Below, in pieces: positions 9,698-55,918 of a stretch of 64,000 nt of DNA (within the stretch, counting starts at the first letter, position 1; every line of letters begins with the position of its first letter). Origin of the DNA: Frondihabitans sp. 762G35 (GTDB taxonomy: Bacteria > Actinomycetota > Actinomycetes > Actinomycetales > Microbacteriaceae); assembly GCF_002074055.1 (NCBI RefSeq), contig NZ_CP014619.1, positions 1,860,001 through 1,924,000 on the forward strand, written 5' to 3'. A program made the translations under genes and the position numbers. Under the pieces are notes generated by a model. The model had not been told where the DNA came from. It worked only from the letters and a program-made list of their open reading frames with translations, and did not search any database.

Positions 9698-10473
9698 GCC
9701 TCGACGTCTCTCACCTCCGCGTGTCGATCGGCGGGACGGCCCTCGTCGACGACGTGTCGTTCAGCGTGCCGACCGGGGGGCGCCTCGGCCTCATCGGGGA
9801 GTCGGGCTCGGGGAAGTCGCTGTCGCTCCTGGCGATCCTCGGGCTCGCGCCGTCCGGCGCCGAGGTGACCGGGAGCGTCCTGCTCGACGGCGAGGAGATC
9901 CTCTCGCTGCCCGAGCGCCGGCTCGCCCGTCTCCGTGGCTCGCGGATCGGCACGGTGTTCCAGGACCCGCTGACCGCACTGAACCCGCTCCACACGATCG
10001 GACGGCAGCTGGCCGAACCGCTCCGGATCCACGAGGGGCTCGGCAAGCGCGAGGGGCGGGCGCGAGCCGTCGAGGCGGCGCGCGAGGTCGGGCTCCCCGA
10101 CCCGGAGACGATCGTCGACCTTTTCCCGCACCAGATCTCCGGCGGACAGCGGCAGCGCGTCGGCATCGCGATGGCGCTGGCCTGCCGACCCGGGCTCCTC
10201 CTCGCCGACGAGCCGACGACGGCTCTCGACGTGACGACGCAGAAGGAGATCCTCGACCTGTTCCGCCGGCTCTCGGACGAGCTCGGCGTGGCGCTCGTGT
10301 TCGTCACGCACGACCTCGCCGTCCTGGCGCAGATCACCGAGGAGGTCGTCGTGCTCTCCGGGGGGCGCGCGGTCGAGCGCGGCACGGTGACGGGCATCCT
10401 GCAGGAGCCCCGCCACCCCGTGACCCGGGGTCTCGTCGATGCCGCACGGGCCACCACCTGGGGGGATCGATGA
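9694..10473 (+). CDS. ABC transporter ATPase, DppD/OppD type
   Basis: A 259-residue ATPase with Walker A GESGSGKS, signature ISGGQRQRVGIAMALA, Walker B LLLADEPTTALDVTTQ and H-loop VFVTHDLAVLAQ. The Q-loop region TVFQDPLTALNPLHTIG is characteristic of the peptide/nickel subfamily. It lacks the C-terminal iron-sulfur or oligopeptide extension seen in full-length DppD, so it is closer to NikD in size. The ATG at 9694 overlaps the DppC stop, implying coupled translation. Confidence 0.92.
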   Translation: MSLDVSHLRVSIGGTALVDDVSFSVPTGGRLGLIGESGSGKSLSLLAILGLAPSGAEVTGSVLLDGEEILSLPERRLARLRGSRIGTVFQDPLTALNPLHTIGRQLAEPLRIHEGLGKREGRARAVEAAREVGLPDPETIVDLFPHQISGGQRQRVGIAMALACRPGLLLADEPTTALDVTTQKEILDLFRRLSDELGVALVFVTHDLAVLAQITEEVVVLSGGRAVERGTVTGILQEPRHPVTRGLVDAARATTWGDR

Positions 10474-11279
10474 GTGCGCTGCTGACCGCGAGCGGCGTCG
10501 GTCGCGACTTCGTGCTGCCCCGTCGGACCCTCTTCACGCCGGGGGTCGTCCGGCACGCGGTCGTCGACGCCTCCCTCGAGGTCGGCCCGGGCGAGAGCGT
10601 CGGGCTCATCGGGGAGTCGGGATCCGGCAAGTCGACGCTCGTGCGCATCCTGCTCGCCCTCGACCGGGCGACCACGGGGACCGTGACCTTCGACGGCCGG
10701 CCGGTCGTTCCGGGCCCCGCATCGCGCCTGCGGTGGCTGCGTCGCCAGACCGGGGTCGTCCTGCAGGATCCGTACGCCTCGCTCGACCCGCGGATGCGCG
10801 TTCTCGACATCGTCGCCGAACCCCTGCGGGCGCTCCGCATCGAGGGCTCGCACCGCGACCTCGTCGTCGACGTGCTCGCCCGCGTCGGCCTCGACGACGG
10901 CACCCTCGACCGGTACCCGCACGAATTCAGCGGCGGTCAGCGGCAGCGGATCGCGCTCGCCCGCGCCCTCGTGCACTCGCCCCGGCTGCTCGTCGGCGAC
11001 GAGCCCCTGAGCGCGCTGGACGTGACCGTGCGGGCGCAGATCCTCGAGCTGCTGGCGTCGCTCCGCGAGGAGCTGGGGCTGTCGCTCCTGATCGTGTCGC
11101 ACGACCTCGGGCTCGTCGATCACCTCTGCGATCGGGTCGCGGTGATGAACGCCGGGCGGATCGTCGAGCAGGGTCCGACCCGCGACGTGCTGGCCGACCC
11201 GCAGGATGCGTACACGCGGCGGCTCGTCGCGTCGGTGCCGAGGTTGCCCGGTGCGGGGCCCGTCGGGTCGTCAGCGTGA
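10470..11279 (+). CDS. ABC transporter ATPase, DppF/OppF type
   Basis: A 269-residue second ATPase closing the five-gene importer. It has Walker A GESGSGKST, Q-loop VVLQDPYASLDPRMRV, signature FSGGQRQRIALARALVHSPR, Walker B LLVGDEPLSALDVTVRAQ and H-loop LIVSHDLGLVDHL. The C-terminal GPTRDVLADPQDAYTRRLVASVP segment is the DppF/NikE-type tail. The start overlaps the DppD stop as ATGA, like every junction in this operon. The gene ends 12 bases before the first palindromic repeat array and is convergent with the amidase. Confidence 0.92.
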   Translation: MSALLTASGVGRDFVLPRRTLFTPGVVRHAVVDASLEVGPGESVGLIGESGSGKSTLVRILLALDRATTGTVTFDGRPVVPGPASRLRWLRRQTGVVLQDPYASLDPRMRVLDIVAEPLRALRIEGSHRDLVVDVLARVGLDDGTLDRYPHEFSGGQRQRIALARALVHSPRLLVGDEPLSALDVTVRAQILELLASLREELGLSLLIVSHDLGLVDHLCDRVAVMNAGRIVEQGPTRDVLADPQDAYTRRLVASVPRLPGAGPVGSSA

Positions 11280-11290
11280 CCCCCGGGGCG

Positions 11291-11430
11291 CGAGACTCCA
11301 CGACGTGCGAGGTTTCGCGAACGTGAGCGGCGAGTCGTGGAGTCTCGCGGGGGGCGGCGTGGGGCAGCGGCACCGAGACTCCACGATTGGCGACGTTTCA
11401 CGAACGTGAGCGGCGAGTCGTGGAGTCTCG
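11291..11430 (+). repeat. 57-bp palindromic element array A (2 copies, 83-bp period)
   Basis: Two copies, 11291-11347 and 11374-11430, each exactly 57 bp and separated by 26 bp. Both have perfect 13-bp arms CGAGACTCCACGA and TCGTGGAGTCTCG. The core of the second copy reads TTGGCGACGTTTCACGAACG and then GAGCGGCGAG. The array lies between the convergent dppF-type gene and the amidase. Other arrays of the same element lie at 30264-30486 and 45627-46011. Confidence 0.9.
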
Positions 11431-11459: not shown

Positions 11460-12881
11460 TCACCACTGCCGCGGGTGCCGCCTCTGCCAGTGCAGGCGCC
11501 GTTCGAGCTGCGCGCCGATCGCGAGAAGCACGTCCTCGCGCCCGGGCCGCCCGATCAGCTGCACTCCGACGGGCAGGCCGTCGACCTCGTGCACGGGCAG
11601 CGAGATCGCCGGGAGCCCCGCCACGTTGACGAACGACGTGAACGGCGCGTAGAGGCACTGCTGCTCGAAGTTCCGCTCGGCGTCGTCCGCGTCGTACCAG
11701 CCGACGGGCCGTGGCGGGAGGGCCAGCGTCGGAGTGAGGATCGCGTCGAACGACGAGAACTGCTCGATGACGCTCCGTTCGAACGCCGTCAGCCCGGCGA
11801 GCGTCTCGGCGAGATCGCGCGCCGACATGGCGCGACCGCGCTCGACGAGCCAGCGGGTGATCGGCTCGAGCAGGTCGAGGTCCGCCCCCTCGGCCGGAAT
11901 GGACGCCGCGCCCGCCTGCCAGAGCGAGTGGAAGAGCTCCCCGTAGTTCGAGGGCCGGAGCGAGGCCTCGTCGACACCGTGCCCCATCGCCACCAGCTCG
12001 TCGGTCGTGACCGCCAGCGCCTGGAGCACCGACGGGTTGAGGACGACGTCGTAGGTGTCGTCCCACGGGCTCGCGGTGAGAACCCCGACCTGGAACCGCC
12101 CCTCGCCGCGCACCGCCGCCCCGAGGAACGATCCGGCCGGATTCTCGGGGGCCCCCAGAGCGAACGGGTGACGGGCGGGCATCCCCTCGGGCGACACCAT
12201 CGCGTCGAGCAGCATCCCCGCGTCGGCCACCGTCCGCGCGATCGGACCGCCGACGGCGAGTCCGCCGAGGCTCGTGATGCCCGACTGCGCGGGGACCCGC
12301 CCCCGAGAGGGTTTCAGCCCGACGAGACCCGTCGCCGACGCCGGGATCCGGATGGACCCCCCACCGTCCGATCCCGGGGCGAACGGCAGGAGCCCGGCGG
12401 CGACCGCCGCCGCGGCTCCCCCGCTGGAGCCGCCGGGACCGAGCTCGAGGTTCCACGGGTTGCGGGTCGGGGGTCCGATGAGCGTCTCGGTGTAGGCGGT
12501 GAGACCGAACTCGGGGGTCGCGGTCTTGCCGAGGCTGACGGCTCCTGCGCGGTCCACGACCTCGACGATCTCGGAGTCCGACCGGGCGATGCGCCCGCGG
12601 CCGAGGCGCGACCCCGACCACGTCGGAACGCCGCGGCGATCGGTGAGGTCCTTGTCGGCGAGCGGGAGACCCCAGAGGGCGGCCGTCGTGCGCCCCGCCT
12701 CGGTGAGCGCGTCCGCCCGGGCCCGGGCTCCGTCGGCGGTCACCGTGACGAAGGAGCCGATCGCGGGGTCGAGCCGCGCGATGCGCTCGAGGTAGTGGTC
12801 GGTGAGCTCGCGGGGCGTGACGTCGCCGCGGCGCAGCCAGTCCCACTGCTCCTGCGCGCTGAGGTGGTGGAGTTCGAACAT
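11460..12881 (-). CDS. Amidase (amidase-signature family)
   Basis: A 473-residue serine hydrolase of the amidase-signature family, which cleaves carboxamides with a Ser-cisSer-Lys triad. The signature GPGGSSGGAAAAVAAG is present, the lysine is in LADKDLTDRRGVPT near residue 76, and the nucleophile lies in GSDGGGSIRIPASATGLVGLKPSRGRVP. The overall layout resembles 6-aminohexanoate-cyclic-dimer hydrolase and GatA-like amidases of unknown substrate. I set the start at the ATG at 12881 (MFELHHLSAQ); a TAGGAT box lies 8 bases upstream, so the transcript is nearly leaderless. The much longer open frame upstream is a GC-driven artefact antisense to the next gene. Confidence 0.88.
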   Translation of the reverse strand: MFELHHLSAQEQWDWLRRGDVTPRELTDHYLERIARLDPAIGSFVTVTADGARARADALTEAGRTTAALWGLPLADKDLTDRRGVPTWSGSRLGRGRIARSDSEIVEVVDRAGAVSLGKTATPEFGLTAYTETLIGPPTRNPWNLELGPGGSSGGAAAAVAAGLLPFAPGSDGGGSIRIPASATGLVGLKPSRGRVPAQSGITSLGGLAVGGPIARTVADAGMLLDAMVSPEGMPARHPFALGAPENPAGSFLGAAVRGEGRFQVGVLTASPWDDTYDVVLNPSVLQALAVTTDELVAMGHGVDEASLRPSNYGELFHSLWQAGAASIPAEGADLDLLEPITRWLVERGRAMSARDLAETLAGLTAFERSVIEQFSSFDAILTPTLALPPRPVGWYDADDAERNFEQQCLYAPFTSFVNVAGLPAISLPVHEVDGLPVGVQLIGRPGREDVLLAIGAQLERRLHWQRRHPRQW

Positions 12882-29477: not shown

Positions 29478-29550
29478 CATTAGCCCTGACGGCGCCCCTG
29501 TGATCCGGCTCCATCAGCGCCACACCCTCCCAGTGAAAGAGAGTTCACAC

Positions 29551-30228
29551 GTGCCCGACTCCGAAGGCCGCATTCGCCTCGCCCTGGTCGACGACCACAA
29601 GATGCTCCTCGGTGCGCTCAGCGAGTGGATCCGCGGTGCCGCCAGCGACATCTCGATGGTCGCCGCGGTCGCGTCGTGGCCCGAGCTCCTGACCCACCCC
29701 GAGTTCCCCGTCGACGTCGTGCTGCTCGACCTCGACCTGAAGGATAACCTCCCGATCTCCCTCAAGATCTCCACGCTGAAGACCGCCGGGGTCAAGACGG
29801 TCTTGATGAGCACCTACTCCGAGCCCAACCTGGTGCGAGAGGCCCTCGCCGCCGGCGCGCTCGGCTACCTCGTCAAGAGCGAGGACGCCGAGATGATCGT
29901 CGAGGCGATCCGCTCCGCGTCGAACGGCGAGTCGTACATCTCCGCCGAGCTCGACCTCGCGCTCAACGCGGCGGAGGTGGGCGGCGTGCCGAAACTCAGC
30001 GCGCAGGAGCGACGGGTCATGGCCCTCTACGGCGGCGGCGAGCCCGTCAAGGCGGTCGCCTACCAGCTCGGCATCTCCGAGGAGACCGCGAAGAGCTACC
30101 TCAAGCGCATCCGCGAGAAGTACCGCGTCGCGGGCTTCGACGTCGGCACCAAGGTGGCGCTGCGGAAGCGGGCCATCCAGGACGGCATCCTGCTCCAGAC
30201 GGACGACGCCGGCCCCGCCGGCTTCTAG
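29551..30228 (+). CDS. LuxR/NarL-family response regulator
   Basis: A 225-residue transcription factor. The receiver domain has the acidic pair DD at 14-15, the phospho-acceptor D60 in VVLLDLDLKDN, and the conserved Lys in GYLVKSEDAE. The LuxR-type helix-turn-helix occupies about residues 150-215 (LSAQERRVMALYGGGEPVKAVAYQLGISEETAKSYLKRIREKY). I prefer GTG 29551, with AAAGAGAG 8 bases upstream, over a GTG at 29500. It is the partner of the NarL-type kinase two genes upstream. It ends 36 bases before palindromic array B. Confidence 0.9.
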   Translation: MPDSEGRIRLALVDDHKMLLGALSEWIRGAASDISMVAAVASWPELLTHPEFPVDVVLLDLDLKDNLPISLKISTLKTAGVKTVLMSTYSEPNLVREALAAGALGYLVKSEDAEMIVEAIRSASNGESYISAELDLALNAAEVGGVPKLSAQERRVMALYGGGEPVKAVAYQLGISEETAKSYLKRIREKYRVAGFDVGTKVALRKRAIQDGILLQTDDAGPAGF

Positions 30229-30263: not shown

Positions 30264-30486
30264 CGAGACTCCACAACACGCCGCTCACTTTCGCCAGAAC
30301 GCACCAATCGTGGAGTCTCGCCGCACGCGCCGGTGCCCGCGCTTCGCGAGACTCCACAACACGCCGCTCACTTTCGCCAGAACGCGCCAATCGTGGAGTC
30401 TCGCCGCTCGCGCCGGTGCCCACGCTTCGCGAGACTCCACGACACGCCGCTCAACTTCGTGAGAACGGGCCAATCGTGGAGTCTCG
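30264..30486 (-). repeat. 57-bp palindromic element array B (3 copies, 83-bp period)
   Basis: Copies at 30264-30320, 30347-30403 and 30430-30486, each 57 bp, with near-identical 26-bp spacers. The asymmetric core is in the opposite orientation to arrays A and C. Arms are CGAGACTCC and GGAGTCTCG plus 3-4 further bases. Two copies have CAA in place of CGA in one arm, which becomes a G-U pair when read on the minus strand. The array lies between the convergent regulator and MFS genes. Confidence 0.9.
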
Positions 30487-30506
30487 CCCCGGGCGATAGC
30501 GCCCGG

Positions 30507-31757
30507 CTACGCGGGGATGGTCCGGATCTCCCGCGTGTCCGACGGCACGGGCTCGCCGCGCAGAGCCTGGCGCCGCTGCACGGCGTAGCTCACCGCCGTC
30601 AGCACGATGCCGCCCAGGGCGAGCGCGACTCCGACCCACGCCGGAGCCTGGAACCCCAGCCCCGCGGCGATGACCGCCCCGCCGAGGTACGCGCCCAGGC
30701 TGTTGCCGAGGTTGAAGGCCGAGTGGTTGAGCGCGGCCGCGATCACCTGGCTGTCGCCCGCCACCTCCATCAGCCGCGTCTGAATAGCGGGGCTGATGAG
30801 CGAGGAGGTCAGCCCCAGGAGGAAGGCGAAGAAGAAGATCCCGACGATCGTGTTCGCCGTGAGCCCGTATCCCACGAGGGACACGACGAGTCCGCCGAAG
30901 CCGAACACGAGGGTGCGCCGGATGCTCTTGTCGGCGCCCCAGCCGCCGAGGAGGTTGCCGATGGTCATGCCGACGCCGACGCCGACGAGGACGAACGGGA
31001 CCAGCGACTCCGAGTAGCCCGTGTGGGTGACGGCCGGCGAGACGTAGCTGTAGACGGCGAAGAAGCCGCCGAAGCCGATCGCGCCGATGCCCATGACCAG
31101 CCACACCTGCGGTTTGGCGAAGGCCTGCAGCTCGCGCCTCAGCGACGCGCCCTCGGCGGCGTCCTGGTGCGGCAGGGCGAGCGCGACGGCCGCGAACGTG
31201 AGGGCGAAGATGAGCGCGACCGCGACGTAGGCGATGCGCCAGCCTGCGACCTGGCCGAGCCAGGTGATGAGCGGCACTCCGACGATGTTGGAGATCGTGA
31301 GGCCCGACAGGACGAACGCCACGCCCTTGCCCTTGTTCCCGGGCCCCATCAGAGAGGCCGCGGCCAGCGAGGCGATTCCGAAGTAGGCGCCGTGCGGGAG
31401 ACCGGCGGCGAACCGCGCCAGCAGCACCAGGCCGAACGACGGGAGGACGGCCGACGCGACCGTCCCGACGACGAACGCGGCGAGCAGGATGAGCAGCAGC
31501 TTCTTCCGGGGCACGTGCGAGGTGGTCGCGGCGATCGTGGGGGCCCCGACGACGACGCCCAGGGCGTAGGCGCTGATCAGCATGCCGGCGTGCGCCGTCG
31601 TCGTCGAGGCCGACTGGGCGAACGCGGCGGGCATCAGGTCGCGCGCGATGTTCGGCAGGAGCCCCATCGCCACGAACTCCGTGGCGCCGATGGCGAAGCC
31701 GCCCATCGCGAGGGAGACGAGCGCGAAGCGCCGGCGGCGGGCGGAGATCTGGGACAC
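30507..31757 (-). CDS. MFS transporter, AraJ/arabinose-efflux type
   Basis: A 416-residue, 12-helix major facilitator of the drug:H+ antiporter-1 group. It starts MGGFAIGATEFVAMGLLPNIARDL, the AraJ/NepI signature, and has the motif-A-like loop TTSHVPRKKLLL and motif C GLTISNIVGVPLITWLGQVAGWR. The likely job is proton-driven efflux of a drug, sugar or purine; the substrate is not evident. The GTG start at 31757 has AAGGG upstream. It stands alone, with array B at its 3' end. The 203 bases upstream show no other gene. Confidence 0.9.
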   Translation of the reverse strand: MSQISARRRRFALVSLAMGGFAIGATEFVAMGLLPNIARDLMPAAFAQSASTTTAHAGMLISAYALGVVVGAPTIAATTSHVPRKKLLLILLAAFVVGTVASAVLPSFGLVLLARFAAGLPHGAYFGIASLAAASLMGPGNKGKGVAFVLSGLTISNIVGVPLITWLGQVAGWRIAYVAVALIFALTFAAVALALPHQDAAEGASLRRELQAFAKPQVWLVMGIGAIGFGGFFAVYSYVSPAVTHTGYSESLVPFVLVGVGVGMTIGNLLGGWGADKSIRRTLVFGFGGLVVSLVGYGLTANTIVGIFFFAFLLGLTSSLISPAIQTRLMEVAGDSQVIAAALNHSAFNLGNSLGAYLGGAVIAAGLGFQAPAWVGVALALGGIVLTAVSYAVQRRQALRGEPVPSDTREIRTIPA

Positions 31758-41648: not shown

Positions 41649-44600
41649 GTGTCAAGCCACGTGACCGGAACAACCGACGAGGGCGCTGCCGCCGAATTCG
41701 GCGCGAACGAGTGGCTCGTCGACGAGCTGTACGAGCAGTACCTCGTCGACAAGAACTCGGTCGATCGGTCGTGGTGGCCCACCCTCGAGACCTACCGGCA
41801 GTCCGACGCCGGTGGGGCGGGCACCGCAGGAGCCCCGGCTCCCGCCGCGACCGCCCCCGTCCCCTCCTCGCCCGGCGCGCCCGCCGACCAGCCCGGCGTC
41901 TCCGGTGCCGGCTACGCCGCGACTCCTGCCCCCGTCTCTCCTGCCCCCGTCTCTCCGGCCCCCTCCCCCGCCGCGCCCGTCGCGTCGGCTCCCGCCACCC
42001 CGGCTCCCGCCGGCAAGGCGGCTCCCGCGAGCACCTCCGGCCCCGTCGTCGCCGCGCGCACCACCTCCGTCCAGCCGCGCGAGAAACCGATCCCGGCCGA
42101 CGCGCCGACCGCTCCCGCGGCCAAGAAGAAGCCCGACGCCGAGCAGCCGGTCGCCGAGGCCGAGAACGTCGTCCAGCCCCTCCGCGGCATGTCGAAGAGC
42201 CTCGCGACCAACATGGACGCCAGCCTCACCATGCCGACGGCCACCAGCGTGCGGACCGTCCCGGCGAAGCTGATGATCGACAACCGCATCGTCATCAACA
42301 ACCACCTCAAGCGGGCTCGCGGCGGCAAGATCTCCTTCACCCACCTCATCGGCTGGGCGCTCGTCCAGGCGCTGAAGGAGTTCCCCAGCCAGAACGTGTT
42401 CTACGACGTCGTCGACGGCAAGCCCAGCGTCGTGACTCCCGCGCACATCAACCTCGGCCTCGCGATCGACATCCCGAAGCCCGACGGCACCCGTGCGCTC
42501 CTCGTTCCCGGCATCAAGAAGGCCGAGACCCTCACCTTCGCGCAGTTCCTCACCGCTTACGAAGACATCGTCAAGAAGGCCAGGGCCAACAAGCTCACCG
42601 CCGACGACTTCGCCGGCAACACGATCTCCCTCACCAACCCCGGCGGCATCGGGACCGTCCACAGCGTCCCGCGCCTCATGAAGGGCGCCGGGGCGATCAT
42701 CGGTGCGGGTGCCCTCGAGTACCCCGCCGAGTTCCAGGGCTCCTCCGCCAAGACGCTCGTCGAGCTCGGCATCGGCAAGACCATCACGCTGACCTCGACG
42801 TACGACCACCGGGTGATCCAGGGGGCCGGGTCGGGCGAGTTCCTCAAGATCGTGCACGAGATGCTCATCGGCGGTCGCGGCTTCTACGACGACATCTTCG
42901 CCGCGCTCCGCATCCCCTACGCGCCCATCCGCTGGAACTCCGACATCAACGTCAACCTGTCGGAGCGCGTCGGCAAGACGGCCCGCGTGCAGGAGCTCAT
43001 CAACAGCTACCGCGTGCGCGGCCACCTCATGGCCGACATCGACCCGCTCGAGTACCGCCAGCGCACGCACCCCGACCTCGAGATCGAGCGCCACGGGCTG
43101 ACCTTCTGGGATCTCGACCGCGAGTTCGTCACCGGCGGCTTCGGCGGCCGGTCCAGCATGCTCCTGCGCGACATCCTCGGCGTGCTCCGCGACTCCTACT
43201 GCCGCACCATCGGCATCGAGTACATGCACATCCAGGACCCCGCGCAGAGGCGTTGGGTGCAGGAGCACATCGAGGTCCCCTACACGAAGCCGACCCACGA
43301 CGAGCAGATGCGCATCCTGGGCAAGCTCAACGAGGCCGAGGCCTTCGAGACGTTCCTCCAGACGAAGTACGTCGGTCAGAAGCGGTTCAGCCTCGAGGGC
43401 GGCGAGTCCGCCATCGCCCTGCTCGACACCGTCATCCAGGAGGCGGCGGCGTCCGGCCTCCAGGAAGTCGCGATCGGCATGGCCCACCGCGGTCGCCTCA
43501 ACGTGCTCACCAACATCGCGGGCAAGACGTACGGCCAGATCTTCCGCGAGTTCGAGGGCACGCAGGATCCCCGGACCGTCCAGGGCTCGGGAGACGTCAA
43601 GTACCACCTCGGCACCGAGGGCGAGTTCACCTCCGCCGCCGGCAAGACGATCCCCGTCTACATCGCGGCCAACCCCTCGCACCTGGAGGCCGGCGACGGC
43701 GTCCTCGAGGGGATCGTGCGCGCCAAGCAGGACCGCGGAGCCCCGATGAGCTTCGCCGTCCTGCCGATCCTCGTCCACGGCGATGCCGCCATGGCGGGCC
43801 AGGGCGTCGTCGTCGAGACGATGCAGATGTCCCAGCTGCGCGGCTACCGGGTGGGCGGCACGATCCACGTCGTCATCAACAACCAGGTCGGATTCACGAC
43901 CTCGCCCTCCGAGGGGCGCTCGTCGATCTACTCGACCGACGTCGCAAAGACGATCCAGGCTCCGATCTTCCACGTGAACGGCGACGACCCCGAGGCCGTC
44001 GCCCGCGTCGCCGAGCTGGCCTTCGCGTACCGGCAGGAGTTCAAGCGCGACGTCGTCGTCGACCTCATCTGCTACCGCCGCCGCGGGCACAACGAGGGCG
44101 ACGACCCGTCGATGACCCAGCCGCTCATGTACAGCCTGATCGAGGCCAAGCGAAGCGTCCGGACCCTCTACACCGAGGCCCTCGTCGGTCGCGGCGACAT
44201 CACGCAGGAGGAGTACGAGGGCGCCCACCGCGACTTCCAGGACCGCCTCGAGCGCGCCTTCGGCGAGACGCACGCGGCTCAGACCGGCTCGATCCCGGTG
44301 GTCACCGACGACGACAACGCCGTGGCCGACCTCGAGCGTCCCGTCGCGCAGCAGAACGACGACGGAGCGAACCAGGTCTTCGACACGGGCGTCGACCTCA
44401 GCCTCATCCACGCGATCGGCGACTCCTTCGACAACCCGCCCGCCGGCTTCACCGTCCACCCGAAGCTCCAGCAGCTCCTGAAGAAGCGCGTCGAGATGAC
44501 CCGCTCGGGCCAGATCGACTGGGCCTTCGGAGAGCTCCTCGCGCTCGGGACCGTCCTCACGGAGGGCACCCCCGTCCGGCTCGCTGGCCAGGACAGCCGC

Positions 44601-45542
44601 CGCGGCACGTTCGTGCAGCGCCACGCCGTCCTCCACGACCGCGAGAACGACCAGGAGTGGATCCCGCTCCAGAACGTCACCGACGGCCAGGCCAAGCTCT
44701 GGATCTACGACTCCCTGCTGAGCGAGTTCGCGGCGATGGGCTTCGAGTACGGCTACTCGGTCGAGCGCGCCGACGCCCTCGTGCTCTGGGAGGCGCAGTT
44801 CGGCGACTTCGCGAACGGCGCCCAGACGATCGTCGACGAGTTCATCTCGAGTGCCGAGCAGAAGTGGGGCCAGCGCTCCAGCGTCGTGCTCCTGCTCCCC
44901 CACGGCTACGAGGGTCAGGGTCCCGACCACTCCTCGGCTCGTATCGAGCGCTACCTCCAGCTCTGCGCCGAGAACAACATGACGGTCGCCCGGCCCTCGA
45001 CACCGGCGTCGTACTTCCACCTGCTCCGCCGCCAGGCGTACGCGCGACCCCGCCGTCCGCTGATCGTCTTCACGCCGAAGGCCATGCTGCGGCTGCGCGG
45101 TGCCACAAGCGACGTCGAGGCCTTCACGGGCGGCCGTTTCGAGGAGGTGCTCGACTGCACCCGGGTGTCCGATCCCTCGAAGACGAAGCGGATCGTCCTC
45201 CACTCCGGCAAGATCCACTACGACCTGCAGGCCGAGCTCGAGAAGCGCGGCGTCGACCAGAACGACGTGGCTCTCATCCGTCTCGAGCAGCTGTACCCGC
45301 TGCCTCTCGAGCGCATCCGCGAGATCCTGGCGCGCTACTCCGGCGCCGACATCGTGTGGGCGCAGGAGGAGCCGGAGAACCAGGGCGCCTGGCCGTTCAT
45401 CGCCCTGGAGCTCGCGCCTCACCTCGGTGGGCGCTCCGTGAGCGTCGTGTCGCGGCCGGCGTCCGCGTCTCCTGCCGCCGGATCGTCGAAGCGGAGCGCG
45501 GCCGAGCTCGCCGACCTGCTCGATCGGGCGCTCACCCTCTAG
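41649..45542 (+). CDS. kgd: Multifunctional 2-oxoglutarate dehydrogenase/decarboxylase Kgd (E1 with fused E2-like domain)
   Basis: A 1297-residue enzyme with three parts. Residues 1-50 are the E1 N-terminal helix ([27 protein letters not shown]). Residues 52-175 are a long Ala/Pro linker. Residues 180-420 form an E2-type succinyltransferase-like domain ending in [16 protein letters not shown]. From about 430 comes the thiamine-diphosphate E1 core, with AHRGRLNVL, the TPP/Mg motif [14 protein letters not shown]...NNQVGFTT, and [16 protein letters not shown]. There is no lipoyl domain, as in mycobacterial Kgd and corynebacterial OdhA. The product feeds succinyl-CoA, or an alternative semialdehyde, into the TCA cycle. 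In relatives OdhI/GarA regulates it; that gene is not in this window. The start is GTG 41649, and a GGCGAGC/GCTCGCC hairpin (41591-41612) lies in its leader. Confidence 0.96.
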
Positions 45543-45553
45543 TCGCACCGGTG

Positions 45554-45583
45554 CGGGGCGTTCGACTTCGGTCGGGCGCCCCG
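45554..45583 (+). terminator. kgd terminator with TTCG tetraloop
   Basis: CGGGGCG (45554-45560) pairs with CGCCCCG (45577-45583). Between them CGAC-TTCG-GTCG forms an inner tetraloop stem. It starts 11 bases after the kgd stop and precedes array C. Confidence 0.65.
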
Positions 45584-45626
45584 TCTCGTCGTGCTCTCGT
45601 GTCGTCGTGCTCGCTCTCCGCACGGG

Positions 45627-46011
45627 CGTGACTCCACGTTTGGCACGTTCTCCCGAACGTGAGCGGCGTGTCGTGGAGTCACGCCGCGGGGCGTGCGGCG
45701 CCGGCCCCCGAGACTCCACATTTGGCACGTTCTCCCGAACGTGAGCAGCATGTCGTGGAGCCACGTTGCGGAGCGTGCGGGGCCGGTTCCCCGGACTCCA
45801 CGTTTGGCACGTTTCCCCGAACGTGAGCAGCGTGTCGTGGAGTCACGTTGCGGGGCGTGCGGCGCCGCCCTCCGAGACTCCACGTTTGGCACGTTTTCCC
45901 GAAAGTGAGCAGCGTGTCGTGGAGTCACGTTGCGGGGCGTGCGGCGCCGCCCTCCGAGACTCCACGTTTGGCACGTTTTCCCGAAAGTGAGCAGCGTGTC
46001 GTGGAGTCTCG
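45627..46011 (+). repeat. 57-bp palindromic element array C (5 copies, strict 82-bp period)
   Basis: Copies start at 45627, 45709, 45791, 45873 and 45955, each 57 bp, with 25-bp GC-rich spacers that are themselves nearly the same. The core TTTGGCACGTT...GAACGTGAGC contains a second small hairpin (CACGTTC/GAACGTG) in copy 1. Copy 1 has reciprocal changes (CGTGACTCC with GGAGTCACG) that keep the arms paired; copies 2-4 carry mismatches. The array lies between the convergent kgd and GNAT genes. I see no gene in 45543-46060. Confidence 0.92.
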
Positions 46012-46060
46012 CGGCGACGCGCCCGAGCGCGACGGCGCGCGGGGGCGGAGCGCGACCGCG

Positions 46061-46504
46061 TCAGGCGATCTTCGTGTAGCGGAGCACTCCCGAGTCGTGG
46101 TACCCGCGCTTCTGATAGAAGCGGTGCGCCGAGTCGGTCGCCGCAGCGGACACGGCGCTGAGCTGCAGCGCCCGGTGCGACCGCCCCCAGCGTTCGAAGT
46201 GCGCGAGGACGAGCGAACCGAGGCCGTCGCGCCGCACGTCGGGCCGGACGACGAGCAGCAGGAGCTGCGCGGTCGGTTGATCGGAGTTGTACGCCCAGGT
46301 GACATGGCCACCGGCGACGGCGGAGATCCTGCCGTCCGCGTCGCGAACGACCCACGTCTCGTGGCCCGCCTCCCGCGTCAGCCGCGCGAGGCGCGACGCG
46401 AGCTCGTCGGACTCGATCGAGTAGCCGAGCAGTCGGATGAGGGCGACGAGATCGTCGAGGTCACGAGCGGTCGCCTGGCCCAGCGACTCCACGGTGGCGG
46501 TCAT
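46061..46504 (-). CDS. GNAT-family N-acetyltransferase
   Basis: A 147-residue single GNAT domain. The acetyl-CoA loop is VRPDVRRDGLGSLVLAHFERWGRSH (about residues 86-110). The C-terminal SAAATDSAHRFYQKRGYHDSGVLRYTKIA is the typical strand-helix pair ending the fold. The substrate cannot be predicted. It is leaderless: TAGCGT (46511-46516, minus strand) is 6 bases before ATG 46504. It is monocistronic, with repeat array C immediately past its stop. Confidence 0.86.
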   Translation of the reverse strand: MTATVESLGQATARDLDDLVALIRLLGYSIESDELASRLARLTREAGHETWVVRDADGRISAVAGGHVTWAYNSDQPTAQLLLLVVRPDVRRDGLGSLVLAHFERWGRSHRALQLSAVSAAATDSAHRFYQKRGYHDSGVLRYTKIA

Positions 46505-55488: not shown

Positions 55489-55544
55489 GAGCGCGACGCC
55501 CCGCTCGATGAGCGAGGACAGCACAGGCACGACAGAGGCAGGAG

Positions 55545-55918
55545 TGGAGATGGGGGGAATTGAACCCCCGTCCATCGCTGAGATTGAACGTCTTCTACGG
55601 GCGTAGCCAGATGAGGCGTTCTACTCGGCTCCGACCTTTGCTACTGGCTTCTAGGTCGACGAGCCCAGTCGGAGTGGAAGTCCCGTGTGACCCTCCGGCG
55701 CGATCACACAGCGAGCCCTCTAGCTGACGCCAGGATCCGGTTAGAAGGCGATCACCGGTCTGACGGACTTATGTGGCTCTGCTACTTACGCAGCGAGAGC
55801 GAAGTCAGTGCGCGATTTATTGGCACTTATTGTTTTCCAGAGATCGTTTACGAGATAACCCTGGATCCTCGGCCCGCTTCTCGTTCGCATACAGGCGATG
55901 TCGAAACCGATCATCCCC
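55545..55918 (-). ncRNA. ssrA: Transfer-messenger RNA (tmRNA)
   Basis: A 374-base RNA that rescues stalled ribosomes and tags their products. The 5' end GGGGATGATCGGTTTCGACA (55918 downward) is diagnostic. Its first seven bases pair with CATCTCC at 55546-55552, forming the acceptor stem. GGTTCAATTCC is the T-arm. The tag reading frame at 55824-55789 encodes ANKSRTDFALAA, followed by TAA. The base after the discriminator A is C but the genome reads CTC, so CCA is not encoded and must be added afterwards. It lies downstream of smpB, its protein partner, and ends in an intrinsic terminator. Confidence 0.97.

What the first reader, a model, noticed from the sequence alone, without database searches (positions are those of the whole stretch)
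45627..46011. A 57-bp palindromic element in strict 82/83-bp arrays, only between convergent genes
Ten copies in three arrays (11291-11430, 30264-30486, 45627-46011) are all exactly 57 bp, with 12-13-bp complementary arms (CGAGACTCC...GGAGTCTCG). Spacing is invariant: 82 bp five times over in array C, 83 bp in A and B. Spacers of 25-26 bp are similar within an array. All three arrays lie between converging genes, and array B has the core reversed. Copy C1 shows reciprocal arm changes that keep pairing, which suggests the folded form matters. This resembles a REP/BIME family, but the even phasing (about eight helical turns) is unusual. Roles could be bidirectional transcription barriers, nucleoid-protein docking, or a mobilised hairpin element.
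Basis: partly seen in the sequence, partly recalled or inferred. Interest (0 to 1): 0.75.

Follow-up and report, generated by a model that had tools for sequence, protein, structure and literature searches.

The report
Evenly phased DNA palindromes at gene ends
This bacterium carries about 170 copies of a 57-letter DNA palindrome, most often where two genes end facing each other, and neighbouring copies are mostly spaced by whole turns of the double helix, which suggests that an unknown protein docks on them side by side.

Summary
In detail: ten 57-bp palindromes in three arrays, each between converging genes. Genome-wide I catalogued 166 units at 72 loci. They are 57 or 58 bp, built from halves of 28 and 29 bp. 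"Only convergent" is true in the window, not in the genome: 39 of 72 loci are convergent, 27 tandem, 6 divergent; none of 49 multi-unit arrays is divergent.

New findings. (1) Spacing is quantised: centre-to-centre mostly 82-86, 91-96 and 102-105 bp, steps near 10.3 bp, across unrelated spacers, inverted neighbours and diverged neighbours. A second genus repeats it at short distances. (2) A pattern that allowed 44-70 bp finds the element in 32 of 398 Microbacteriaceae genomes; 74 of 75 listed sites outside this genome are 55-58 bp. (3) Each arm has a free triplet (26 kinds), complementary between arms in 53 of 75 sites.

Canonical terminators are unlikely (T-run after 0 of 144 array ends). The REP transposase family RAYT was not found in this genome. 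Best reading: a REP-like family whose units are docking sites for an unidentified symmetric DNA-binding protein that contacts neighbours on one helix face. Phasing created by the duplication mechanism is the main rival. No protein was identified.

The parts
11291..11430 (+). Array A: two 57-bp units (11291-11347, 11374-11430), period 83, spacer 26 bp
30264..30486 (-). Array B: three 57-bp units (30264-30320, 30347-30403, 30430-30486), core reversed, period 83, spacers 26 bp
45627..46011 (+). Array C: five 57-bp units (45627-45683, 45709-45765, 45791-45847, 45873-45929, 45955-46011), period 82, spacers 25 bp
10470..11279 (+). left gene converging on array A (ABC-type ORF, 269 aa)
11460..12881 (-). 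right gene converging on array A (amidase-like ORF); the same junction carries one unit with different arms in relative G002
29500..30228 (+). left gene converging on array B (response-regulator-type ORF, 242 aa)
30507..31757 (-). right gene converging on array B (transporter-type ORF, 416 aa)
41649..45542 (+). left gene converging on array C (2-oxoglutarate-dehydrogenase-type ORF, 1297 aa)
46061..46504 (-). right gene converging on array C (GNAT-type ORF, 147 aa); the junction is conserved in 6 of 6 genus relatives, without this array

Best explanation
The 57/58-bp unit is a DNA site, not primarily an RNA signal. It is made of two inverted half-elements of 28 and 29 bp. SHOWN: fixed unit length, co-varying arms, helical phasing of neighbours, 3'-end and convergent preference, growth of some arrays by tandem duplication. 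INFERRED: a two-fold-symmetric sequence-specific protein (or complex) binds both arms of a unit. Bound units in an array contact each other, so units must lie on one face of the helix; duplications or indels that break the phase are lost while whole-turn changes survive. INFERRED and weaker: placed at gene ends, the arrays act as roadblock, insulator or topological anchor between converging transcription units, the kind of role proposed for E. coli BIMEs. The protein's specificity differs between lineages, as the free triplet in each arm suggests.
For: Spacers fall in classes 25-28 (42), 34-39 (36) and 45-47 (11) of 94; 5 lie outside (51, 53, 65, 95, 107) and none at 29-33 or 40-44. One first spacer per array, 47 of 49 (two over 60 bp left out): r=0.84 at period 10.3, against at most 0.52 in 5,000 uniform sets; with the two long ones r=0.82. 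55 values collapsed by array and class give r=0.835. Mean deviation from the fitted phase is 0.75 bp over 92 pairs up to 130 bp (random 2.58); 0.58 bp for 7 inverted pairs; 0.79 bp for neighbours under 75% identical, one pair from each of 10 arrays, with 0 of 100,000 simulations as low. In a second genus (G305, other arms) short spacings 83, 83, 92, 94 x4, 105, 106, 114 share the phase (p=1.5e-4, n=10; p=0.013 for all 19). Unit length: with exact 7-nt arms and lengths of 35-90 bp allowed, 121 of 121 own sites in the held stretches are 57 (103) or 58 (18); 74 of 75 listed sites of other genomes are 55-58 bp although 44-70 was allowed; the same pattern in viral contigs gave 8 matches of scattered length, 44-60. 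Unit orientation is unrelated to transcription in tandem contexts (11 same, 12 opposite, 4 mixed or XX), and a T-run follows 0 of 144 array ends.
Against: No binding protein was found or systematically searched for. Arrays arise partly by tandem duplication (spacer repeated in the outer flank in 12 of 49 arrays), so a phase-prone duplication mechanism could mimic selection. 23 of 72 loci hold single units, which need no phase. In G305, spacings above 115 bp are not clearly phased (117, 122, 126, 130, 131, 136, 146, 150, 193), and the 115-bp cut was chosen after seeing the data. The phase was fitted on the same pairs. Periods of 10.0-10.5 fit nearly as well. Array C is absent from the same junction in 6 of 6 relatives, so that array is not essential to the genus. 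Mismatches in the arms lean to G.T over A.C (109 to 21 without column 14), which could mean folding of one strand as RNA or single-stranded DNA, but 81 of the 109 come from two columns.
Confidence: 0.45

Rival explanations
1. Selfish palindromic element (REP/MITE-like) with no host function. The phase is a by-product of how copies are inserted or duplicated, for example a transposase complex choosing targets on one helix face, or hairpin processing by an SbcCD-type nuclease that cuts in about 10-bp steps followed by duplication.
For: High copy; turnover of position between relatives (2 of 14 tested G002 units share both flanking genes with an own locus); tandem duplication signature in 12 of 49 arrays; lineage-specific arms. 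SbcCD is reported to introduce double-strand breaks at about 10-bp intervals on long hairpins (PMC6265447, passages read).
Against: No Y1/RAYT transposase match in the own genome or in 7 of 8 element-bearing relatives; other transposase families were not searched. No near-identical 57-bp copies between loci (best 96.5%), so no recent spread. Phase is about as tight between diverged neighbours as between near-identical ones, although indels should blur it without selection. No match to phage or plasmid records by blastn with array C.
Confidence: 0.3
2. RNA hairpins: bidirectional U-less terminators or 3'-end stabilisers of converging transcripts.
For: Stable folds in 10 of 10 strands tested; median 41.5 bp from stop codons at convergent junctions (78 distances); compensatory arm changes between species. 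At the array-C junction relative G001 has an ordinary terminator-like hairpin instead. REPs are commonly argued to act as RNA elements (PMC3733652, abstract and passages).
Against: 0 of 144 array ends carry a T-run. Helical phasing and a fixed 55-58-bp length have no evident role in RNA. Orientation is indifferent to transcription. Up to seven tandem copies are not needed for termination. A separate GC-rich inverted repeat lies just after the stop codon before array C (sequence).
Confidence: 0.15
3. Docking site of a known topoisomerase or nucleoid protein (DNA gyrase as at E. coli BIME-2, or an HU/IHF-type protein) rather than of a dedicated protein.
For: Gyrase cleavage sites are over-represented in E. 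coli BIME-2 and the gyrase motif has flanking periodic regions (PMC6379681, passages). Converging genes collect positive supercoils (established knowledge). A+T content of the unit has a period near 9.6-9.8 in G305 and G002 (p 0.014 and 0.011).
Against: The A+T periodicity is not significant in the own genome, G156 or G318 (p 0.15-0.25). Gyrase and HU are widely conserved (recalled), which does not explain lineage-specific complementary triplets or a patchy distribution (at least 32 of 398 family genomes).
Confidence: 0.1

Closest known systems
REP / BIME elements (GTAG and CGTC super-families)
   Same: High-copy extragenic palindromes, predominantly between unidirectional and convergent ORFs, some families species-specific; BIMEs with regularly spaced REPs (PMC3733652, PMC2817692: abstract and passages).
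   Different: Unit is 55-58 bp, not 20-40; both ends are paired CGAG/CTCG with no unpaired GTAG or CGTC tag; no RAYT match in the own genome; spacings form helical-turn classes with unrelated spacer sequences ('helical' has 0 hits in PMC3733652, PMC2817692 and PMC3116915).
REPINs (Pseudomonas fluorescens)
   Same: Two inverted half-elements form the unit; preferred distances (71, 110 bp) and some evenly spaced tandem arrays (PMC3116915, passages).
   Different: REPIN peaks are distances between the two REPs of one doublet, and RAYTs are the proposed movers (PMC3733652 abstract for RAYTs); here the unit's length is fixed over a variable core, and the distances between units are quantised as well.
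Intrinsic terminators between convergent genes
   Same: Hairpin, 3'-end location.
   Different: No T-run (0 of 144 array ends), fixed length, family-wide consensus, arrays.
CRISPR arrays
   Same: Repeats separated by spacers of near-constant length.
   Different: Spacers resemble each other within most arrays, units diverge, 72 dispersed loci of one to seven units.

Membership tests
REP (GTAG/CGTC-tagged) | extragenic palindrome in high copy | tested here: met
   166 units at 72 loci, intergenic
REP (GTAG/CGTC-tagged) | unpaired GTAG or CGTC tag at one end | tested here: not met
   ends are CGAG/CTCG, paired
REP (GTAG/CGTC-tagged) | RAYT (Y1_Tnp, PF01797) in the genome | tested here: not met
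   0 hits in G000; 1 of 8 other element-bearing genomes has one, G288; 6 of 14 control genomes ring
REP (GTAG/CGTC-tagged) | preference for convergent and unidirectional junctions | tested here: met
   39 convergent, 27 tandem, 6 divergent against 16.9, 31.0, 24.1 expected by intergenic length with array loci added back (p=4e-10)
BIME-2 | binding and cleavage by DNA gyrase | not testable with these tools
   needs Topo-seq or in vitro cleavage
MITE | target-site duplication and cognate transposase | not tested
   no TSD analysis; PF01797 was the only transposase family searched
Intrinsic terminator | GC-rich hairpin followed by a T-run | tested here: not met
   0 of 144 array ends
CRISPR | unique spacers between near-identical repeats | tested here: not met
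   spacers resemble each other within most multi-unit arrays
Described structured RNA families (Rfam 15) | match to a covariance model | tested here: not met
   no match up to E=1 for 45540-46070; at gathering scores only tmRNA in the window

The most novel reading that the evidence does not exclude
A family-wide class of chromosomal docking sites in Microbacteriaceae, consensus CGAGAnnnCRCRA-(29-32)-TYGYGn'n'n'TCTCG, read by a dedicated, fast-evolving, two-fold-symmetric protein. The complementary triplet is a lineage-specific identity code, and arrays are held in helical phase so that the protein polymerises or clusters between converging transcription units as a boundary element.
Probability: 0.25. 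Interest if true: 0.85.

Novelty: new variant of a known kind. Interest (0 to 1): 0.64.

Why it matters
Whether REP-like repeats act as DNA or as RNA has stayed open. Phasing by whole helical turns, kept between diverged and inverted neighbours, is a sequence-only signature that points to protein contacts on DNA, and it can be tested directly by 5-bp against 10-bp spacer changes. The fixed length and the co-varying triplet give a concrete bait for finding the protein.

Tried and rejected
Named-organism scan (arms GAGACTCCAC, inner length 20-50): 4 of 22 stretches are Frondihabitans sp. Leaf304, all with 57/58-bp units; their letters are those of relative G004, from which I infer that the genus is Frondihabitans. 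Ten stretches are one Actinomycetota MAG with 67-bp palindromes; the other eight are single matches of other lengths. RAYT as partner: rejected. Phage or plasmid origin: no blastn match. Viral contigs: 8 matches, 44-60 bp, one of them 56, used as a control. Replication-direction bias: + and - loci are similar in both halves of the record, 22/13 and 23/17; overall + excess p=0.11. Carrier gene between nearby units: five regions read, nothing that looked like a mover, no family search run. Orientation against transcription: none. G.T against A.C asymmetry: not used as evidence, because two columns dominate. A+T periodicity: inconclusive.

Rows dropped before counts. One search selected 187 candidates (arms within 6 mismatches, length 40-75): 147 of 57 bp, 22 of 58 bp, 18 of other lengths. 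One search kept only 57 and 58 bp with limited mismatch (166). The 3 dropped of 57/58 bp include one likely member at genome position 1149631, so the 165-bp spacing and 107-bp spacer there are an artefact (84 and 81). One of the 18 others, 61 bp at 1051930, looks like a true member with an insertion. The pattern could not see units under 57 bp and its listing is cut; the length claim rests. One search was capped at 150 candidates; a 395-kb grid placed between known loci held no further unit. Models R1-R3 have 57 positions and lean to 57-bp hits. One search left out spacers over 60 bp and collapsed values by classes one turn wide; one search repeats the test without classes. Gene calls come from my own caller, trained on little sequence for the relatives.

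Full report
CHECK. The ten 57-bp copies, their coordinates, the reversed core of array B and the convergent flanks are all real. Array C has four intervals of 82 bp, not five. In the window, 3 of 4 convergent gaps of at least 60 bp carry an array, against 0 of 22 other gaps (p=0.0015).

GENOME. The window lies in a complete 3,409,251-bp genome. From stretches around these I catalogued 166 units at 72 loci: 145 of 57 bp and 21 of 58 bp; loci hold 1 (23), 2 (23), 3 (16), 4 (3), 5 (6) or 7 (1) units. This catalogue was filtered to 57 and 58 bp; without such a filter, exact 7-nt arms with unit lengths of 35-90 bp allowed give 121 of 121 sites at 57 (103) or 58 (18) in the same DNA, and 121 is also the whole-genome count of an exact pattern. 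A 395-kb grid between the known loci held none. Each unit is two inverted halves: X (29 bp...GACTCGCCGCTCAC) and Y (28 bp...TTTGGCCACG). X+Y gives 57 bp and X+X gives 58 bp.

CONTEXT. 39 loci are convergent, 27 tandem (two of these first called inside a gene because of a 24-bp overlap with an uncertain start) and 6 divergent. Expected by intergenic length: 15.0, 31.5 and 25.4 from the array-free grid (p=2e-12), or 16.9, 31.0 and 24.1 with the array loci added back (p=4e-10). Of 49 multi-unit arrays, 33 are convergent, 16 tandem, 0 divergent; of 23 single units 6, 11 and 6. In the relatives read, 21 of 48 units are convergent, 20 tandem, 5 divergent, 2 inside called genes (my count of the element-like rows: G156 10, G305 15, G318 12, G002 11; other rows there are chance matches, most of them inside genes).

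SPACING. Spacer lengths are quantised: 25-28 (42), 34-39 (36), 45-47 (11), others 5, of 94, with none at 29-33 or 40-44. The first spacer of each array alone, 47 of 49 values under 60 bp, gives r=0.84 at period 10.3; all 49 give 0.82. The best period is 10.2, and 10.0-10.5 are equivalent. Spacers of different arrays share GC-richness (0.85 against 0.69 in other intergenic DNA) and some enriched hexamers, no more that I could see. Phase is kept by inverted neighbours (83, 83, 83, 94, 102, 104, 104) and by neighbours less than 75% identical. Within arrays, spacers that look related differ by 1-2, 8, 11, 19 or 30 bp (my reading; few cases). Arrays grow by tandem duplication: in 12 of 49 the spacer is repeated in an outer flank, against 0.4% for mismatched pairs.

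OTHER GENOMES. A broader model found 26 of 299 family genomes, 10 of 85 genera. The cleanest test is a pattern with free length (44-70 bp) and a free triplet in each arm: 32 of 398 genomes (the own one included), 18 of 85 genera; the backwards control matched in one genome, G218. The pattern is exact, so these are lower bounds: it misses G001 and G005, which the models hit. Of 75 listed sites in 30 other genomes, 74 are 55-58 bp (1, 16, 46 and 11) and one, in G007, is 66; the listing is truncated. The triplets are fully complementary in 53 of 75 sites (1.2 expected for arms that do not pair; sites of one genome are related) and in at least one site of 23 of 30 genomes; 26 different triplets occur. 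In the viral collection the same pattern gave 8 matches of 44-60 bp without a peak. Genomes tend to keep one length: G255 5 of 5 and G156 7 of 7 listed sites are 56, G305 8 of 8 are 57, G288 4 of 4 are 58 (a model hit of 57 bp in G288 is listed). In an alignment of own, G001 and G002 units, 90.7% of arm cells pair and 32 cells have changes on both sides, against 11.7 in shuffles; the number of pairs with such a change, 6, is not unusual (71 of 500 shuffles reach it).

REPLICATION OF THE PHASE. A G305-specific model found 44 sites, 15 clusters of two or more within 200 bp plus singles. Nineteen spacings (three equal 92s in one cluster counted once) fit the own phase at p=0.013; the ten up to 115 bp at p=1.5e-4. 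Longer ones are mixed. The 115-bp cut was chosen after seeing the data.

SYNTENY. The array-C junction is conserved in 6 of 6 genus relatives without this array. G002 has three copies of another palindrome with period 88 there, G004 and G005 have one unrelated palindrome each, G001 an ordinary terminator-like hairpin, G003 about 120 bp without the element, and G006 almost nothing. Two of 14 G002 units tested share both flanking genes with an own locus (array A and genome position 955633) and carry G002-type arms. In G318, another genus, 2 of 12 units lie at the 3' end of a gene whose close match (74% and 79% identical) ends beside an own array, the other flank not matching; given 72 own loci, that may be chance. 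The test could only see own DNA held around arrays.

MECHANISM. A fixed length over a variable core, symmetric co-varying arms, whole-turn spacing independent of spacer sequence and orientation, and indifference to transcription direction together favour a protein-DNA reading over an RNA reading. That a protein binds, and that it acts as a boundary between converging genes, is inference. The strongest alternative is that duplication itself is phased; tight phase between old, diverged neighbours speaks against it but does not exclude it.

LITERATURE. Ten text searches listed no paper that I recognised as describing such elements in Microbacteriaceae in the held library. Papers seen only in part: PMC3733652 (outline, abstract, 4 passages), PMC3116915 (12 passages), PMC2817692, PMC6265447, PMC6379681.

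Noticed in passing
L142:2050-2313 (relative G002, junction orthologous to array C): Three tandem copies, period 88, of an unrelated AT-richer palindrome (TTTTACCTATAGGTAAG...) where the window has array C; different palindromes occupy the same convergent gap in different species.
   Followed up: partly
L139 and L140, just after the orthologous stop codon: G004 and G005 each carry one further unrelated long palindrome (GAAGGAGATTTCGC... and GAAATCGAAGGGGAT...) at the same junction.
   Followed up: no
L055, L057, L059, L060, L071 (MAG SZAS CTRL-6): An Actinomycetota MAG has a family of 67-bp palindromes with GAGACTCCAC arms on ten stretches; in the five read a second similar arm pair is nested inside.
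   Followed up: no
outer flanks of arrays in the own genome: The DNA leaving the X end is G-rich on the outward strand; a G-quadruplex-type motif lies within 100 nt of 23 of 88 X ends (0 of 88 on the other strand) and of 1 of 56 Y ends (2 of 56 on the other strand).
   Followed up: partly
tandem-context loci, own genome: 21 of 27 tandem loci lie between two minus-strand genes, although gene strands in the held stretches are nearly balanced (251 to 218).
   Followed up: no
window 45555-45582 and 30490-30505: Short GC-rich inverted repeats (GGGGCG...CGCCCC, CGGGCG-ATAG-CGCCCG) lie between the stop codon and array C, and between array B and the stop codon of the right-hand gene, so genes may have hairpins of their own.
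   Followed up: no
window 55542-55918 (-): tmRNA gene (Rfam RF00023, 158.7 bits).
   Followed up: no
G288:C47:1993-2232: Y1 transposase-like stretch (PF01797 positions 2-81, E=1.9e-24) with one stop inside, in a genome whose four sites listed are 58 bp.
   Followed up: no
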